Source: Uliginosibacterium sp. 31-16
GTDB taxonomy: Bacteria > Pseudomonadota > Gammaproteobacteria > Burkholderiales > Rhodocyclaceae
Assembly: GCF_030730865.1 (NCBI RefSeq)
Contig: NZ_JAVALZ010000001.1
Span: forward strand, 868,001-932,000
DNA: 64,000 bases
Direction: 5' to 3'
The notes below the pieces were generated by a model. The model worked only from the letters and a program-made list of their open reading frames with translations. It was not told the origin of the DNA and did not search any database. This document shows positions 45,892 through 51,879 of the stretch, in pieces. A program made the translations under genes and the position numbers. Positions within the stretch are counted from its first letter, which is position 1; the number at the start of each line of letters is the position of its first letter.

Positions 45892-46434
45892 TCACCAGCT
45901 GAGCTTGCGCGACTTGGCGGAGAGTTTCGCGGCGCGCTGAATCTTGTCGGCAGCGAGCTGGGCGTCGATGAAACGCAGGCGCTTGAATCTGTCGAAAGTA
46001 TTCACTTCGATGCTCTTCAGCTCGGCAGGCCTGGCACATTTGAACTGATAGTGCGCATCCAGATCCGCATGCTCGTGGCCATGAGCATCGGCCTTGGCTG
46101 TTGGTGCAGCCTTCTCGCCGAGCAGTTCGGGTGCGATGGCGGCGGATTCGAGTTTCACGCTGCTCAAGATGCAGCCTGCCGCCGCAGTGGGAACGAAAAG
46201 CTTGTCGCCGGCGCGCAGCAGCGCGGCCACTTCGCGCACCTTGGCGAAATCCTTTTCGTACTGCGGTTTGCGCTCGAAGCCGAGCAGGCTGTCTAGCGGA
46301 GCTTCCAGCTCGATGCTGAGCAGCTCGCCTTCGATGCTGATTGCCAGTTCGGCCACGCCGTGGCTGTGGCCCTTGGCGGCCAGGGCTGGAGTGCTGAGCA
46401 AAAGACCGGCGAGCAGGGGCAGTGCGAAGCGCAT
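45892..46434 (-). CDS. DUF2796 (ZrgA-like) histidine-rich periplasmic protein
   Basis: A 180 aa secreted protein with signal peptide (residues 1-19, ending TPALA), the DUF2796 start KGHSHGVAELAISIEGELLSIELEAPLDSLLGFE and a metal-ligand-rich stretch HGHEHADLDAHY. I recall DUF2796 members being part of the zinc-regulated Zrg uptake system of Vibrio. As first gene of this run it may be the zinc-binding component. Preceded by a 25 bp palindrome at 46493-46517. Confidence 0.82.
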   Translation of the reverse strand: MRFALPLLAGLLLSTPALAAKGHSHGVAELAISIEGELLSIELEAPLDSLLGFERKPQYEKDFAKVREVAALLRAGDKLFVPTAAAGCILSSVKLESAAIAPELLGEKAAPTAKADAHGHEHADLDAHYQFKCARPAELKSIEVNTFDRFKRLRFIDAQLAADKIQRAAKLSAKSRKLSW

Positions 46435-46492
46435 GGCGGTTTTCCTTTCGGGCGACGAATCCGTAAGGCCGGAATTGGAGCACGCCCCAGCC

Positions 46493-46517
46493 GCTCTTGC
46501 AACTCTGTTGCAAGAGC
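46493..46517. promoter_or_regulatory. Perfect palindrome between DUF2796 and chrA-like genes
   Basis: GCTCTTGCAAC (46493-46503) and GTTGCAAGAGC (46507-46517) are an exact 11 bp inverted repeat around TCT. Position between divergent genes and the symmetric TTGCAAC...GTTGCAA core suggest an operator for a dimeric regulator, possibly a Zur-like zinc repressor given the downstream genes. Identity of the regulator is inference. Confidence 0.6.
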
Positions 46518-46586
46518 ATCAGTGGTTCAGGCAGTGATCTGCAGCCTTTACACTGCAGACTTTGACTGTTGCTCCCGGTGCTTCCG

Positions 46587-47930
46587 ATGCGCGATTCCGG
46601 TTCCATTCCCTTTTTCGTCGCCCTGCGCTTCTGGCTCAAGCTCGGCTTCATCAGCTTCGGCGGGCCGGCCGGGCAGATCGCCATCATGCACAGCGATCTG
46701 GTCGAGAAGCGGCGCTGGGTTTCAGAGAAGCGTTTTCTGCACGCACTCAACTACTGCATGCTGCTGCCCGGGCCGGAGGCGCAGCAGCTGGCCACCTATC
46801 TGGGCTGGCTGATGCACCGCCGCTGGGGCGGCATCGTTGCGGGGGCGCTGTTCGTGCTGCCCTCGCTGCTGATCCTGATTGGTTTGTCATGGCTGTACAT
46901 GGCGTTTGGCCAGCAGCCGCTGGTGGCCGGCCTGTTCTACGGCATCAAGCCCGCGGTGTGCGCCATCGTGCTGCAGGCGGCCTGGCGCATCGGCGGACGC
47001 ACCCTGCACAACCGCTGGCTGTGGGCCATCGCGGTGCTGGCCTTTGTCGCCATCTTCGCCCTGCAACTGCCGTTTCCGCTCATCGTGGCCGGCGCCGCGG
47101 CGCTGGGCTGGCTGGGCGGACACGTACGCCCGGCGGCTTTCCAGACCGGTGGCCATGCCTCGGCGGCGAAGTCTTACGGCCCGGCACTGATCGATGACGA
47201 CACGCCCACGCCGCCGCATGCACGCTTCAGCTGGACGCGGCTGGCCCTGATCCTCGGTGCCGGCGCGCTCCTGTGGCTGCTGCCGATGGGCCTGCTCACC
47301 GTCCTCTGCGGCTGGCCGCATTTGCTCACGCAGACCGGCTGGTTCTTCACCAAGGCGGCGTTCCTCACCTTCGGCGGCGCCTACGCGGTGCTGCCCTATG
47401 TGTATCAGGGCGCGGTGCTGCACTACGCCTGGCTCACCCCCACGCAGATGATCGACGGGCTGGCGCTGGGGGAAACCACGCCGGGGCCGCTGATCATGGT
47501 GGTGGCCTTCGTCGGCTTTGTCGGCGGCTGGAGCGAGGCCACGCAGATGGCCTCCGGCGCCTTCCTGTCCGGCCCGGCCATCCTGCTGATGGCGGTGGCC
47601 GGTGCCTGCGTCGCCACGTACTTCACCTTTCTGCCCTCCTTCATCCTGATTTTCGCAGGGGGGCCGCTCGTGGAATCAACCCGCGATGATCTGAAATTCA
47701 CCGCACCGCTCACCGCCATCACCGCTGCCGTGGTCGGGGTGATCCTCAATCTGGCGCTGTTCTTCGCCTGGCACGTGTTGTGGCCACAGGGCTTCGCCGG
47801 CAGCCTTGAATGGCCCGCGCTGCTGATTGCGCTGTGCGCGGCGGTTGCGCTGCTGCGCTTCAAGGCCAATGTCATGGCGGTGATCGGCGCCTGCGCGCTC
47901 GCCGGTCTGCTGCTGCAGGGGCTGCGCTGA
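46587..47930 (+). CDS. chrA: Chromate transporter ChrA (long CHR family)
   Basis: A 447 aa inner-membrane exporter with two homologous CHR domains. N-terminal half: FWLKLGFISFGGPAGQIAIMH and LLPGPEAQQLATYLGWLMHRRWGG; C-terminal half: FFTKAAFLTFGGAYAVLPYV and LGETTPGPLIMVVAFVGFVGGW. The doubled FGGPxxQ/FGGAYAVLP and PGP motifs are typical. Expels chromate by a proton-driven process. Start at 46587 is ATG; earlier TTG/GTG codons lack ribosome sites. Overlaps ybaN by 1 base (TGATG). Confidence 0.93.
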   Translation: MRDSGSIPFFVALRFWLKLGFISFGGPAGQIAIMHSDLVEKRRWVSEKRFLHALNYCMLLPGPEAQQLATYLGWLMHRRWGGIVAGALFVLPSLLILIGLSWLYMAFGQQPLVAGLFYGIKPAVCAIVLQAAWRIGGRTLHNRWLWAIAVLAFVAIFALQLPFPLIVAGAAALGWLGGHVRPAAFQTGGHASAAKSYGPALIDDDTPTPPHARFSWTRLALILGAGALLWLLPMGLLTVLCGWPHLLTQTGWFFTKAAFLTFGGAYAVLPYVYQGAVLHYAWLTPTQMIDGLALGETTPGPLIMVVAFVGFVGGWSEATQMASGAFLSGPAILLMAVAGACVATYFTFLPSFILIFAGGPLVESTRDDLKFTAPLTAITAAVVGVILNLALFFAWHVLWPQGFAGSLEWPALLIALCAAVALLRFKANVMAVIGACALAGLLLQGLR

Positions 47931-48298
47931 TGCACCGCGCGATGATCCGCCTGCTGTGGCGCGTGCTCGCCGGCACCGCCGTACTGCTCGGCCTGATCGG
48001 GGTCTTCGTGCCGGGCCTGCCGACCGTGCCGTTCCTGCTCCTTGCGACCTGGGCCGCAGGACGAGGCTGGCCGGCACTCGAAACCTGGCTGCTGACGCAT
48101 CCGCGCTGGGGCACCAGCATCCGGGCCTGGCGCGAACACGGCGCGATGCCGCGGCGCGCCAAATGGGCCGCCTCGATCATGATGGCCCTGAGCACCGGGC
48201 TGATGTATCTCTCCCGCGCGCCGCACTGGCTCACCCTGGGAGTGGCCGTGCTGATGCTGGGCGTGGCGCTCTGGTTGTGGCGGCGCCCCGAAGCGTGA
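47930..48298 (+). CDS. ybaN: DUF454 (YbaN-like) inner-membrane protein
   Basis: A 122 aa protein with three to four helices. Family signature GLIGVFVPGLPTVPFLLLATWAAGRGWPALETWLLTHPRWG followed by IRAWREHGAMPRRAKW. Function is unknown. The start overlaps the chrA stop in TGATG, so translational coupling is likely. Confidence 0.88.
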   Translation: MHRAMIRLLWRVLAGTAVLLGLIGVFVPGLPTVPFLLLATWAAGRGWPALETWLLTHPRWGTSIRAWREHGAMPRRAKWAASIMMALSTGLMYLSRAPHWLTLGVAVLMLGVALWLWRRPEA

Positions 48299-48372
48299 AA
48301 AGTTGATCTGCGCCGCAGCTTTCGCCGCCCGGTCTTGCTAGGCTGGCGGAAAACCATCAGAGAGGAATCAGC

Positions 48373-50121
48373 ATGGATATCCAGAGCGTGCTGCAGACGC
48401 TGGACGGCCTGTTCCAGCAGGGCGCCTATGATCAGGTCGAGCCCTTCATGCTGGCGCATATCGCGCAGGCCGAGGCTGAAGGTGACAAGGGCGCGGTGCT
48501 GAGCCTGCTCAACGAGCTGATGGGGTTTTATCGCGCCCATTCGCGCTTTCAGGATTCGCTGGCCGTGGCCAGCAAGGCACTCGGTCTGCTCGAAGAACTG
48601 GGCCTGAAAAACAGCGTGCACTACGCCACCACCCTGCTCAACGTGGCAACGGCCTGGCGGGCAGATGGGCAGACGCAGCGGGCCATCGGACTCTTCGAAG
48701 AAGTCGGGCGGATGTTCCTCGCACTGGGCGTGGAAGACGCCTTCCTCGTCGCCACGCTCTACAACAATCTCGCGCTGGCCTGGCAGGAGGCGGGGGACCA
48801 CGCGAAGGCGGTGCAATTCCTCGAAGCCGCGCTGCCGATCAGCCGGGGCCGCCCCGGCGCCGAGCACGACGTGGCGGTCAGCCTGACCAATCTTGCCCAG
48901 TCGCGTCTGCGCCTCGGGCAACTGACCGAAGCCCGTATTGCGCTGGAAGAAGCCGACCGGCTGTTCACCGCCTTGCCCCGCCCCAGCGGCCACCACAGTG
49001 CGGCGATCGCCGCGCTGGGCGAGCTGTGTTTCAAGGAAGGCCGGCTGGCGGAGGCTGTGGCTTTTTACGAGCGGGCGCTGGCCGAGATCGAAACCCGCTT
49101 CGGCAAGAATCAGCCGTATGCCGACATGCTGGAAAGTCTGGCCGTGGTGCTGGAAAGTAGCGACCCGGCGCGCAGCGCGAAGCTGAGCGCCGAGGCCCGG
49201 CAGGTCGCCGCGTCCCTGCGTCCGCAACTCAAGGGTCTGGAGCTCGCACGCAGGTATTACGAGAGCTTCCGTGGCGAGCTGCTGGCCAACTGGGCCCCGG
49301 TCGCGCACCGGGTGGCGGCCGGGCTGGTGGGGCATGGCTCGGAGTGCTTCGGTTTTGACGATGAACTCTCGCGTGACCACGATTTCGGCCCCGGCTTCTG
49401 CCTCTGGCTCACCGACGCCGACCATGCCGCCATCGGCGCGCAGATGCAGGCGGATTACGACCGGCTGCCGCGCGAGTTTGCCGGCTTCCCGGCGCGTCAG
49501 GCCAGCCCGCGCAGCGGCCAGCGTGTCGGCGTGTTCCGCATCTCCGACTTCTGCCGGGAGTTTCTGGGAGCCCCCGAACTGCCGGTCAGCGAAGCCGACT
49601 GGCTGCAGATTCCCGAAGAGCGGCTGGCCTGCGCCACCAACGGCGAAGTGTTCAGCGATCCGCTCGGAGAGTTCAGCCGCATCCGTACGGCACTTCAGGC
49701 CTACTACCCGGATGGCATCCTGCGGCGCAAGCTCGCGCAAGCGGTCGCGAAGATGGCACAGAGCGGCCAGTACAATCTGCCGCGTGCCCTCCAGCGTGGC
49801 GAGCCTGCCGCCGCGCTGATGGCACAGGCCGATTTCATCCGCCATGCCTGCGCGGCGATCCATGTGCTGAATCGTCGCTATGCACCGGTCGCCAAGTGGC
49901 TGGTGCGCAGCGTCGGTAGCCTGCCGACGCTCTCTGCCCTGCAGGCGCCACTGAACCAGCTGGCCCAGACCCCGGCAAAGGAAGCCGGCGCACTGGTCGA
50001 AACGATCTGCGCCGCCGTCCTGCAGGAACTGATCGCGCAGGGCTTCACGCAGGCGGGCGACGCCTTCCTTGAGGCGCATGTCGACAACATTCTGGCTGGC
50101 GACAAGAGCAACAAGGCCTGA
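48373..50121 (+). CDS. TPR protein fused to DUF4037 nucleotidyltransferase-like domain
   Basis: A 582 aa cytoplasmic protein. Residues 1-270 are tetratricopeptide repeats (LNVATAWRADGQTQRAIGLFEEV, LYNNLALAWQEAGDHAKAVQFLEAAL, LGELCFKEGRLAEAVAFYERAL). Residues 300-560 match the DUF4037 pattern and carry the nucleotidyltransferase signature G322-S323 with acidic D335-H-D337 in DELSRDHDFG, the GS...DxD metal site of that superfamily. It could transfer a nucleotide to a protein or small molecule. Paired with DUF4125 25 bp downstream, a combination I recall as recurring in diverse bacteria. Function undescribed to my knowledge. Confidence 0.82.
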   Translation: MDIQSVLQTLDGLFQQGAYDQVEPFMLAHIAQAEAEGDKGAVLSLLNELMGFYRAHSRFQDSLAVASKALGLLEELGLKNSVHYATTLLNVATAWRADGQTQRAIGLFEEVGRMFLALGVEDAFLVATLYNNLALAWQEAGDHAKAVQFLEAALPISRGRPGAEHDVAVSLTNLAQSRLRLGQLTEARIALEEADRLFTALPRPSGHHSAAIAALGELCFKEGRLAEAVAFYERALAEIETRFGKNQPYADMLESLAVVLESSDPARSAKLSAEARQVAASLRPQLKGLELARRYYESFRGELLANWAPVAHRVAAGLVGHGSECFGFDDELSRDHDFGPGFCLWLTDADHAAIGAQMQADYDRLPREFAGFPARQASPRSGQRVGVFRISDFCREFLGAPELPVSEADWLQIPEERLACATNGEVFSDPLGEFSRIRTALQAYYPDGILRRKLAQAVAKMAQSGQYNLPRALQRGEPAAALMAQADFIRHACAAIHVLNRRYAPVAKWLVRSVGSLPTLSALQAPLNQLAQTPAKEAGALVETICAAVLQELIAQGFTQAGDAFLEAHVDNILAGDKSNKA

Positions 50122-50146
50122 GCCGGATCACACACAAGGAAGCGAC

Positions 50147-50755
50147 ATGAGCCTCATCGACGATATCGTGGAACTGGAATGGCAGGCCTTCGACAAGGTG
50201 CAGAACGAAGGCGGGCGGGCCAGCTGTCAGGACAATTTCGAGACCTTCCGCATCATGCGCAAGAGCCAGTTCCTCGCCTGGGATGTGGCCACCCTGTCCG
50301 GCTACCACCAGGATCTCTGCATCGCGGCCAGGCGCGGCCGCAACCTCGTGCAGGAAAAGTACGCACGCATGATGGCATCCACCGCACCGGCCGAATACGC
50401 TGCCTTCGCGCATCAGCTGCCGCCCCTGAGCACATGGCAAAAGCGCGCAATCGAGATGATCATCGAAACCCAGCTCGTCTGGCGTGAAGCCTTCGCCGCG
50501 CAATACCCCAAGCTCTCCGGTCAGGCCCGCCTGATCCGTACGGCGGAAGACAGCGCCTATGGCACTTCGTTTGAGACCTATCTGCGCGGCGAGCTGGGCA
50601 CCTATTCCGAAGACACGCTCAAAGCTTATCAGCGCATGGTCGAAGACTATCTGCAGGAAGACCGTAATCTCACTACCATGACGATGGAACACACCGCGAA
50701 ACTTTACGGTTACGCCAGTTTGAGGGATGCAGAATCGAAGCTTGTGGAGTCTTGA
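50147..50755 (+). CDS. DUF4125 protein
   Basis: A 202 aa all-helical cytoplasmic protein. DUF4125 pattern: IVELEWQAFDKVQNEGGRASCQDNFETFRIMRKSQFLAWD, LLxY-like GYHQDLCIAARRGRNLVQEKYARMM, and C-terminal TYSEDTLKAYQRMVEDYLQEDRNLTTMTMEHTAKLYGY. No catalytic motif is evident; it may be the partner or target of the upstream nucleotidyltransferase-like protein. The start at 50147 has AAGGAAG upstream. Followed by about 200 bp AT-rich sequence with no gene. Confidence 0.85.
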   Translation: MSLIDDIVELEWQAFDKVQNEGGRASCQDNFETFRIMRKSQFLAWDVATLSGYHQDLCIAARRGRNLVQEKYARMMASTAPAEYAAFAHQLPPLSTWQKRAIEMIIETQLVWREAFAAQYPKLSGQARLIRTAEDSAYGTSFETYLRGELGTYSEDTLKAYQRMVEDYLQEDRNLTTMTMEHTAKLYGYASLRDAESKLVES

Positions 50756-50952
50756 GCCGATCAGGTCGGCGCACAGAAATCCATCACCCATCATCGCGCT
50801 TCGACAAGAAGCGCGGTGGATTGCTTTACGGTCCCACTCTGCCTGCTGCACCGTACGCGGTCGCAATTTTGCAAGAGCATTTTGATTTTGAGTAAGTTCG
50901 TCTGAGTTTACGAAAAAGCAATGTGATTCGTAAATCAATCTGGAGCTAGCTA

Positions 50953-51171
50953 ATGAAACTAAATTTTTCTGGCACAAGAAAGAAAACAGTTGGCGTTTTA
51001 GCCTTTGCCGTTATGTGCTGGTGGATCGGAGATATTTGGGTTGTTCTTTCAAACATAGAGCGTTACTCGATAATCGAATTATTAAGAACGCTTGTTGCAC
51101 CTCCAGTATTTATTTTTTGGACGTTGCATGCAGCCGAAGTTGTTCAGCAAGGCAGCGATAAGGTGGCGTGA
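50953..51171 (+). CDS. Small membrane protein, AT-rich and probably acquired
   Basis: A 72 aa protein with two hydrophobic helices (about residues 13-33 and 45-62) and a basic N-terminus (MKLNFSGTRKK). A Shine-Dalgarno GGAG lies 9-10 bases before the ATG. Base composition is clearly AT-richer than its neighbours, as is the upstream gap 50760-50950. No family recognised. Confidence 0.5.
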   Translation: MKLNFSGTRKKTVGVLAFAVMCWWIGDIWVVLSNIERYSIIELLRTLVAPPVFIFWTLHAAEVVQQGSDKVA

Positions 51172-51285
51172 TGGTGGTACAAGAATCAACACTTTCAGAC
51201 GAAATGCAGCCTTACTGTGCGCCATGCATGCCAATGAATGAAACACCCGCATAGAGCCTTGTAGGATGGGTCTTTGACCAGCCTT

Positions 51286-51310
51286 GTAGGGTGCGCAATG
51301 CGCACCCTAC
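51286..51310. repeat. Small palindromic element
   Basis: GTAGGGTGCGCA (51286-51297) and TGCGCACCCTAC (51299-51310) form a 12 bp inverted repeat around one A. Elements of this GTAGGGTGCGCA type are dispersed in many proteobacterial genomes; the outer GTAGGG/CCCTAC also bounds the two ~94 bp elements at 61.7 and 62.3 kb. Confidence 0.65.
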
Positions 51311-51373
51311 GAATTGAACTTCTTCTTCCCGGTTTTCTGACGGTCCGCACCAGGTCACAAGTGGCCTGAATGA

Positions 51374-51407
51374 AAAATCCCCTGCCGGCTTCCCGGCAGG
51401 GGATTTT
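51374..51407. terminator. Bidirectional terminator 3' of ibpA-like gene
   Basis: AAAATCCCCTGCCGG (51374-51388) and CCGGCAGGGGATTTT (51393-51407) form a perfect 15 bp stem with a CTTC loop; T-runs follow on both strands. On the minus strand it ends the small heat-shock gene. Confidence 0.95.
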
Positions 51408-51426
51408 TTTGGGGAGGGGATGAAAC

Positions 51427-51879
51427 TCAGGCAGCTTCACCCTTGATCAGAGGCAGGGATTCGCCGCCATCAATGAGGATCTTGCGCGGTTTGTGGGCTT
51501 CCGGGATCTCGCGTTCGAGTTCAATGTCGAGCATGCCGTTGGCGAAGTTGGCGGCCACCACCTTGACGTGATCGTCGAGCTGGAAGCGCTGTTCAAAATC
51601 ACGCGCAGCGATGCCGCGGTGCAGGAAGGTGCGCTGCGCGGAGTCAGCGGCTTTCTTGCCGATAATCCGGAGAGTGTTCTTCTCGGTTTCCACATCCAGT
51701 TCGTCGCGCGAGAAGCCGGCCACTGCCATGCTGATGCGGTATTTGTCTTCCGACACCAGTTCGATGTTGTAGGGCGGGTAGCTGGGCTGCTCGTTGCGCA
51801 GCGCGGCTTCGGCAAGCTGGGCAAGGCGGTCGAAACCGATGGCGGAACGGTACAGCGGGGAGAAGTCATAAGTACGCAT
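51427..51879 (-). CDS. ibpA: Small heat-shock protein IbpA-like (Hsp20)
   Basis: A 150 aa alpha-crystallin chaperone that holds unfolding proteins. N-terminus MRTYDFSPLYRSAIGFDRLAQL and the crystallin domain PPYNIELVSEDKYRISMAVAGFSRDELDVET...GIAARDFEQRFQLDDHVKV match IbpA/IbpB. The C-terminus ends DGGESLPLIKGEAA, with the IxI-like LPLI contact. Preceded by a ROSE-like RNA thermometer and a sigma-32-type -35 box. Confidence 0.93.
   Translation of the reverse strand: MRTYDFSPLYRSAIGFDRLAQLAEAALRNEQPSYPPYNIELVSEDKYRISMAVAGFSRDELDVETEKNTLRIIGKKAADSAQRTFLHRGIAARDFEQRFQLDDHVKVVAANFANGMLDIELEREIPEAHKPRKILIDGGESLPLIKGEAA

What the first reader, a model, noticed from the sequence alone, without database searches (positions are those of the whole stretch)
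48373..50755. TPR-nucleotidyltransferase (DUF4037) protein paired with DUF4125: candidate uncharacterised two-gene system
Seen: a TPR array (residues 1-270) is followed by a domain with a GS...DHD nucleotidyltransferase signature (G322-S323, D335, D337). The next gene, 25 bp downstream, is a helical DUF4125 protein. Known: MNT/HEPN, MenT and Fic-type systems pair a nucleotidyltransferase with a helical partner and transfer nucleotides to proteins or tRNA. Inference: this pair could be a nucleotide-transfer module with TPR-based target or partner recognition. I know of no described function. It lies in a plus-strand run with chrA and ybaN, and AT-rich DNA follows.
Basis: partly seen in the sequence, partly recalled or inferred. 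Interest (0 to 1): 0.72.

Follow-up and report, generated by a model that had tools for sequence, protein, structure and literature searches.

The report
Three-part TPR–nucleotidyltransferase–DUF4125 module
Two neighbouring genes encode a predicted nucleotide-transferring enzyme and a dedicated helical partner that travel together, sometimes fused into one protein, in distantly related bacteria, and whose joint job is still unknown.

Summary
Window 48373-50121 encodes a TPR array plus a nucleotidyltransferase (NT) ending in DUF4037; 50147-50755, 25 nt on, encodes DUF4125 (B). (1) A model of a homologous NT matches aminoglycoside and lincosamide nucleotidyltransferases best (VIA Z 12.6 to 9.4). 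(2) GxGSx11Dx[DE] is present in 37 of 38 NT rows; the other is a fragment. (3) Of 34 loci with B, 33 hold TPR, NT and B on one strand; the last is cut by a contig end.

The parts occur as three genes (7 loci), two genes (18, the window's form) or one protein (8). All 8 genomes of the window's genus have B, but no other genome among 300 of its order.

B is predicted all-helical with high confidence and found no solved relative (best VIA Z 2.2). It shows no sign of being HEPN. Nineteen residues are invariant in 34 rows, many polar.

Best reading: an NT complex in which B is, or holds, the acceptor and TPR recruits a ligand. Nucleotide transfer, acceptor and TPR role are inferred, not shown.

The parts
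48373..50121 (+). Protein A: TPR array + nucleotidyltransferase + DUF4037, 582 aa
   Evidence: ORF; Pfam TPR_12 3.3e-22, DUF4037 1.4e-33
48373..49182 (+). TPR array, about residues 1-270; E48, N90, N131, N132 and N173 the same in 35 of 35 rows
   Evidence: a separate gene in 8 of the loci compared (L005-L009, L065, L068, L069)
49336..49383 (+). Catalytic signature G322-S323-x11-D335-H336-D337
   Evidence: GxGSx11Dx[DE] in 37 of 38 NT rows; model of a homologous NT matches aminoglycoside nucleotidyltransferases
49600..49902 (+). DUF4037: C-terminal helical domain of the nucleotidyltransferase
   Evidence: Pfam 1.4e-33, residues 410-510; listed with HEPN-type C-terminal domains of aminoglycoside nucleotidyltransferases in PMC3710099 (passage)
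50147..50755 (+). Protein B: DUF4125, 202 aa, all-helical partner
   Evidence: Pfam 4.3e-80; model pLDDT 92.2, pTM 0.88; 19 invariant residues in 34 rows
50791..50819 (+). Hairpin 35 nt after B's stop codon, a weak terminator candidate
   Evidence: 12-pair stem (5 terminator-like sites found in the region, 3.9 expected from shuffles); fold z -3.06

Best explanation
A and B are parts of one nucleotidyltransferase complex. The NT domain, with an ANT-type (aminoglycoside nucleotidyltransferase) fold, binds Mg-NTP through G322/S323 and D335/D337 and transfers a nucleoside monophosphate, most likely AMP, to a hydroxyl. B is the dedicated partner: its invariant polar residues (R24, Q28, R38, Q41, N66, K71, Y72, R128, S141, Y145, E149) form a site that either carries the acceptor hydroxyl itself (Y72, S141 and Y145 are invariant candidates) or binds the acceptor or an effector. 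The TPR array is the recruiting or sensing arm. Shown here: the fold of a homologous NT domain by prediction, the conserved signature, the linkage and fusions, B's conservation and the absence of a match for its predicted fold. Inferred: nucleotide transfer, AMP as donor group, B as acceptor or acceptor-holder, the clustering of B's invariant residues, TPR as ligand arm.
For: NT fold: model of the L018 NT-B region (mean pLDDT 91.6); the top 8 VIA rows are all nucleotidyltransferases, Z 12.6 to 9.4, 216-249 residues aligned at rmsd 6.2-6.9. GxGSx11Dx[DE] in 37 of 38 NT rows. Linkage: 33 of 34 B loci have TPR, NT and B together on one strand; in the 34th (L019) TPR lies beside B at a contig end and an NT gene begins another contig of the same genome. 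Arrangements: 7 three-gene, 18 two-gene, 8 single-protein, with at least 3 changes of the NT/B join and at least 3 of the TPR/NT join on the tree. Survey of 299 genomes of the phylum of L020's genome: B in 6, DUF4037 in 13, and all 6 with B have DUF4037 close by. Pairwise distances over 33 loci correlate: NT-B r 0.83, TPR-NT 0.88, TPR-B 0.89; largest of 2000 shuffles 0.36. B is the most conserved part: mean pairwise identity 51%, NT 43%, TPR 37%. All 8 genomes of the genus have one copy of B. The two families also open the lrc operon (lrcLM...) of Syntrophobacteraceae LiM6, both reported as expressed (PMC12583861, passages).
Against: No activity, donor or acceptor was tested. The window's own NT was not folded. 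Foldseek found no match at E 0.001 or better for the NT-B model (best 3.6e-3; TM-scores by target length 0.40-0.55 for the NT entries), and an unrelated helical protein reaches Z 9.0 in the VIA list, close to the eighth NT row. The model's pTM of 0.64 supports no particular packing of B on NT. No third catalytic carboxylate is invariant in the NT alignment. DUF4037 occurs without B in 7 of 13 genomes, 3 of them strong matches, so an NT of this family can do without B. The 34 B loci were found by searching with B, so they test 'B implies A', not the reverse. The distance correlation can follow from shared ancestry and does not prove contact.
Confidence: 0.5

Rival explanations
1. A small-molecule adenylyltransferase: like ANT or LinB, it adds AMP to a metabolite or toxic compound, with B as a subunit that shapes or delivers the substrate and TPR as a scaffold.
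For: The nearest solved folds modify small molecules (ANT-4, LinB, ANT(6)). Some loci lie beside transport or metabolite genes: chrA (window, L003), a MATE pump (L018), a MerR-GyrI regulator (L069), Mrp/Mbh-type antiporter subunits (11 Lachnospiraceae loci by blast clusters, annotated in two of these genomes), limonene ring cleavage (PMC12583861), polyamine synthesis beside a B-less TPR + NT pair (L065).
Against: The neighbours differ from clade to clade, so no one substrate is suggested; TPR and B have no counterpart that I know of in ANT enzymes.
Confidence: 0.25
2. A nucleotide-signal system: NT makes an oligonucleotide or modified nucleotide that B binds as receptor, somewhat as Hailong HalB is bound to oligodeoxyadenylate in a solved structure.
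For: HalB appears among the structural matches (Z 6.7, rmsd 7.3, 186 aligned). B has an invariant polar set that could bind an anionic ligand.
Against: The HalB match is weak, below the ANT enzymes and level with unrelated helical rows. No PADLOC model matches B and only a generic TPR model matches A. B was not found in phage records, nor in viral contigs by its motifs, and in one 'plasmid' record only, of 2.1 Mb.
Confidence: 0.1
3. A toxin-antitoxin pair that works like MntA/HepT: B is a toxin and A adenylylates it to silence it.
For: NT precedes B in 33 of the 33 loci that hold both, mostly within about 0.2 kb, and a closely similar motif is the active motif of MntA (PMC7641770, passages).
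Against: B is not detectably HEPN, is fused to A in 8 loci, is present at one copy in all 8 genomes of the genus, and was seen in no phage record and one 2.1-Mb 'plasmid' record.
Confidence: 0.1
4. A catalytically idle scaffold: NT binds nucleotide only and the module acts as a regulated adaptor.
For: No third invariant carboxylate was found; TPR arrays are common adaptors (general knowledge).
Against: GS and both acidic residues are kept in 37 of 38 rows, one of them with D to E, and the other row is a fragment, unlike a decaying active site.
Confidence: 0.05

Closest known systems
Aminoglycoside and lincosamide nucleotidyltransferases (ANT-4/kanamycin NT, LinB, ANT(6)) and the nucleotidyltransferase-like protein 3c18
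   Same: Best structural matches of a homologous NT model: VIA Z 12.6, 11.2, 9.4 and 12.3; GS...DxD signature
   Different: Profile A1 found no believable match among PDB sequences (two at E 0.93 and 1.1); here a TPR array and a DUF4125 partner are added
TPR-DUF4037 protein listed in PMC3710099 (2013; authors recalled as Anantharaman et al.)
   Same: DUF4037 listed with HEPN-type C-terminal domains of aminoglycoside nucleotidyltransferases, 'Occasionally fused to TPRs' (Table 1 passage)
   Different: The passage gives no function; the paper is not among the two that hold the word DUF4125
LrcL (DUF4125) and LrcM (DUF4037), limonene ring-cleavage operon (PMC12583861)
   Same: The same two families side by side at the start of lrcLMABCDEFGHIJK, reported as expressed (passages)
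   Different: Order reversed (DUF4125 first); described as domains of unknown function. I did not see the sequences
HepT/MntA (HEPN/MNT) toxin-antitoxin
   Same: A GS...DXD nucleotidyltransferase encoded beside a helical partner; MntA adds AMP to HepT Y104 (PMC7641770, abstract and passages)
   Different: Motif spacing x11 rather than x10; partner not HEPN by profile or motif; TPR array; single-protein fusions
Hailong HalB
   Same: Weak structural match of the NT model (Z 6.7)
   Different: The match is level with unrelated helical rows; HalB's role and partner are recalled, and my search found no paper

Membership tests
Pfam DUF4037 and DUF4125 | Match over the curated cut-off | tested here: met
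   116.1 bits against 22.1; 268.5 bits against 25
ANT-type (Pol beta superfamily) nucleotidyltransferase | NT fold with C-terminal helical domain | tested here: met
   Model of the homologous L018 NT-B region: the 8 top VIA rows are all nucleotidyltransferases, Z 12.6-9.4. Limits: Foldseek's best E is 3.6e-3, and the window's own NT, 42% identical to L018's, was not folded
ANT-type (Pol beta superfamily) nucleotidyltransferase | hG[GS]x9-13[DE]h[DE] signature (form recalled) | tested here: met
   GxGSx11Dx[DE] in 37 of 38 rows; the middle residue is His, not hydrophobic
ANT-type (Pol beta superfamily) nucleotidyltransferase | Third catalytic carboxylate or base | tested here: inconclusive
   No acidic residue after the motif reaches 90% conservation; D329 and D330 inside it do
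ANT-type (Pol beta superfamily) nucleotidyltransferase | NMP transfer activity | not testable with these tools
   Needs purified protein
HEPN/MNT (HepT/MntA) toxin-antitoxin | GSX10DXD in the MNT protein | tested here: not met
   Spacing is x11 in 37 of 38 rows; motif definition from PMC7641770
HEPN/MNT (HepT/MntA) toxin-antitoxin | RX4HXY in the partner | tested here: not met
   0 of 34 B rows; R-x4-6-H in 5 of 34; no His is in more than 17 of 34 rows at one column
HEPN/MNT (HepT/MntA) toxin-antitoxin | HEPN profile in the partner | tested here: not met
   hhalign of the B alignment (34 rows) against 10 HepT-like rows: probability 0.2%
HEPN/MNT (HepT/MntA) toxin-antitoxin | HEPN fold in the partner | tested here: inconclusive
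   No HEPN entry among the listed matches; best VIA Z 2.2
Fic AMPylase | HPFx[DE]GN motif (recalled) | tested here: not met
   0 of 34 B rows, pattern H[PF]Fx[DE]GN; A was not tested for it
Known anti-phage defence system | Match to a PADLOC model | tested here: not met
   B none; A only a generic TPR model at 0.00099; library of 2023

The most novel reading that the evidence does not exclude
DUF4125 is a protein with a fold not seen in solved structures and its own conserved ligand or active site, switched by nucleotide transfer from a TPR-guided ANT-type enzyme: a self-contained three-part control system that slots into unrelated operons in several phyla.
Probability: 0.3. Interest if true: 0.8.

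Novelty: new variant of a known kind. Interest (0 to 1): 0.5.

Why it matters
It ties two Pfam families of unknown function into one unit by fusions, gene splits and co-occurrence, which makes a function for both testable at once. Nucleotidyltransferases of this fold are best known from drug resistance and from silencing toxins; a conserved chromosomal version with a TPR arm and a partner of unmatched fold would be a further use. All 8 genomes searched of the window's genus keep one copy, so there it is probably not a passing passenger.

Tried and rejected
Two-gene reading: replaced by a three-part one once TPR and NT were found as separate genes with clean boundaries in L005-L009. In four of the five an ATG in the NT frame lies at the junction (L005, L006, L007, L009); in L008 the NT frame has a GTG overlapping the TPR stop.

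B as a HEPN protein: no profile match, no motif. B against A's NT-DUF4037 profile: no match, so there is no sign that B is a copy of it. A's NT-DUF4037 profile against HepT-like proteins: no match either, so the HEPN kinship of DUF4037 rests on PMC3710099 and on the ANT fold match, not on my profile test. Profiles of both against PDB sequences: no believable hit. Fold of B: best Foldseek E 0.9 in the PDB and 0.68 in viral models; VIA best Z 2.2 among 320 chains. VIA is only a second look at Foldseek's own matches, and no library of predicted cellular proteins was on hand, so 'new fold' is a candidate, not a finding.

Other libraries: NCBIfam gave A only TPR-type matches below their cut-offs (best 54.1 bits against 300) and B none; PHROGs gave B one weak match of unknown function (0.035) and the NT part none.

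Mobile-element or defence reading: phage records 0; viral contigs 1 pattern match, not confirmed; plasmids 1 record, a 2.1-Mb Fusobacterium entry labelled a plasmid. The viral-contig scan uses short motifs of the window's B and would miss distant relatives.

Neighbourhood as a clue to function: contexts differ (Mrp/Mbh antiporter subunits, MATE, MerR-GyrI, P-type ATPase, AMP nucleosidase, polyamine genes, limonene ring cleavage). I annotated selected neighbours, not all, so no enrichment is claimed. The 11 Lachnospiraceae loci with the antiporter genes form one clade on the tree and count as about one event.

Promoters: no sigma-70-type match in 46400-51500. Paper searches that returned no paper; one search listed one paper, not opened. 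Model coordinates were looked for in the Python box and were not there, so I could not check whether B's invariant residues cluster.

Full report
WHAT IS THERE. ORF 48373-50121 encodes 582 residues: TPR repeats to about residue 270, then a nucleotidyltransferase region that ends in Pfam DUF4037 (residues 410-510, 1.4e-33). 50147-50755 encodes DUF4125 (4.3e-80) after a gap of 25 nt. Upstream on the same strand are a chromate transporter and a DUF454 (YbaN) gene. The pair has about the GC of its upstream surroundings (0.62-0.70), and AT-rich DNA follows. The own genome has one copy of each family.

RELATIVES. A motif scan of genome contigs (one genome for each of 84,980 species), with B as query, gave 27 loci: seven titled as Proteobacteria and twenty as Clostridia or other Bacillota. 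tblastn found A's NT in 26 of 27. In the 27th, L019, the order is B then TPR, the contig ends inside the TPR gene, and an NT gene starts another contig of the same genome. With one Fusobacterium record, five further genomes from the survey below and the window, 34 loci hold B. Profiles built here for TPR, NT and B show all three on one strand in 33 of 34. Distances from the NT stop to the B domain in the loci with separate genes run from -4 to 224 nt, except in the Fusobacterium locus L052, where 1108 nt hold an Abi_2 gene. The open-frame lengths of the seven proteobacterial loci equal those of the seven other genomes of the window's genus, so these loci appear to be that one genus, not seven lineages.

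THREE PARTS, SEVERAL PARTITIONS. TPR, NT and B are three genes in 7 loci, two genes (TPR-NT and B) in 18, and one protein in 8. In L005-L009 the gene boundary falls between TPR and NT. On a tree of 33 loci the NT/B join changed at least 3 times and the TPR/NT join at least 3 times. The two-gene forms of the window, L003 and L004 nest among the five three-gene loci of the genus. Repeated fusion or fission is good evidence that the parts work together, though not of how.

CO-OCCURRENCE. In 300 genomes of the window's order, only the window's own has DUF4125 or DUF4037; the listed rows of that draw show 8 other genomes of the family and none of the genus. All 8 genomes of the genus have DUF4125, one copy each. 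In 299 genomes of the window's phylum, DUF4037 was in 2: the own genome and one weaker match at 4.1e-7; DUF4125 was not searched there. In 299 genomes of the phylum of L020's genome, DUF4125 was in 6 and DUF4037 in 13, and all 6 with DUF4125 have DUF4037 close by. Drawing all six from the thirteen by chance has a probability of about 2e-9 (my arithmetic, which ignores relatedness). Seven of the 13 have DUF4037 without DUF4125: three strong (one with TPR, L065; two without a TPR match, L066, L067) and four weak. In 16 of 16 genomes of B loci that I searched, of the 27, there is exactly one DUF4037.

THE ENZYME DOMAIN. GxGSx11Dx[DE] is present in 37 of 38 NT rows; L073 is a fragment. The NT-B part of the L018 single-chain protein was modelled with 48 aligned rows: mean pLDDT 91.6, pTM 0.64. 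Foldseek's best matches are the nucleotidyltransferase-like protein 3c18 (E 3.6e-3), LinB and ANT-4; none reaches E 0.001. VIA gives ANT-4 Z 12.6 (244 aligned, rmsd 6.3), 3c18 12.3, kanamycin nucleotidyltransferase 12.2, LinB 11.2, ANT(6) 9.4; alpha-catenin, an unrelated helical protein, has 9.0, and DrrA (7.2), GlnE (6.7) and HalB (6.7) lie among unrelated helical rows. So the fold call rests on the top seven rows, which stand clear and span both NT subdomains, and on the motif. The high rmsd may mean a different angle between the subdomains (inference). PMC3710099 had already listed DUF4037 with HEPN-type C-terminal domains of aminoglycoside nucleotidyltransferases, 'Occasionally fused to TPRs' (Table 1 passage). 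The enzyme part is thus a known kind.

THE PARTNER. The window's B alone was modelled with 28 rows: pLDDT 92.2, pTM 0.88, nearly all helical. No solved or viral structure matches: Foldseek best E 0.9 and 0.68, VIA best Z 2.2 among 320 chains. The tool's note gives a typical best Z of 14 for five mostly helical models, but those were compared with 48,161 chains, so the contrast is only suggestive. B does not resemble HepT-like proteins by profile, lacks their motif, and has no profile match to A's NT-DUF4037. It is the most conserved of the three parts: 51% mean pairwise identity against 43% and 37%. Nineteen residues are invariant in 34 rows: E11 F15 R24 A25 C27 Q28 F34 M37 R38 Q41 N66 K71 Y72 M75 R128 S141 Y145 G148 E149. 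So many invariant polar residues suggest a binding or active site (inference). I had no coordinates and could not check that they cluster.

HOW IT MOST LIKELY WORKS. NT binds Mg-NTP and transfers NMP to a hydroxyl; B is or holds the acceptor; TPR recruits or senses. The first step rests on fold and motif, the complex on fusions and linkage, and the rest is inference. The fusion model's pTM gives no support to a particular packing. The rivals are small-molecule adenylylation, nucleotide signalling, a toxin-antitoxin pair and an idle scaffold.

LITERATURE. In the held library DUF4037 is in 4 papers and DUF4125 in 2; PF13526 in none and PF13228 in one, seen as a listing. I saw passages of PMC3710099, PMC12583861, PMC10050317, PMC11410844, PMC8477406 and PMC7641770, and no whole paper. 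PMC12583861 names LrcL (DUF4125) and LrcM (DUF4037) as operon neighbours and gives no function in the passages seen. I found no paper in these searches that describes the pair as a system; most subscription journals are not in the library.

VERDICT. The enzyme type is supported, the MNT/HEPN comparison is not, and the function is open. I rate it a new variant of a known kind, interest 0.5.

Noticed in passing
L065:5746-11681: A TPR + NT pair without DUF4125 lies downstream, on the same strand, of genes for a spermidine-synthase family protein, an arginase-family protein, a saccharopine-dehydrogenase-like protein and a PLP-dependent decarboxylase: it looks like a polyamine operon.
   Followed up: partly
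L012, L013, L015, L016, L021, L022, L024-L027, L029; L080:3783-14687: In 11 Lachnospiraceae loci the module follows Mrp/Mbh-type antiporter subunit genes and precedes a protein that is DUF5067 in L029; in 9 of the 11 a protein that is SH3_3 in L029 comes next. Clusters by blast; Pfam run on L029 and L080 only.
   Followed up: partly
L003:2505-4043, L004:993-2483: An AMP nucleosidase gene lies just upstream of the module in two close relatives, but not in the window.
   Followed up: no
L052:7061-7972: In a Fusobacterium vincentii record an Abi_2 gene sits between the TPR-NT gene and the DUF4125 gene. The 2.1-Mb record is labelled a plasmid but has a chromosome's size.
   Followed up: partly
L011:3034-6594: The single-chain form carries 392 residues between the TPR and NT matches, much of it acidic Glu/Pro repeats; L014 and L017 have 209 and 195 residues there.
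   Followed up: no
window 50953-51171: A 72-residue ORF with a hydrophobic stretch, in the AT-rich DNA after the module, has no Pfam match.
   Followed up: no
L007 and L009 records: Contigs titled 'Proteobacteria bacterium' and 'Moraxellaceae bacterium' appear to belong to the window's genus: the genus search lists genomes whose DUF4125 open frames have the same lengths (359 and 454 aa).
   Followed up: partly
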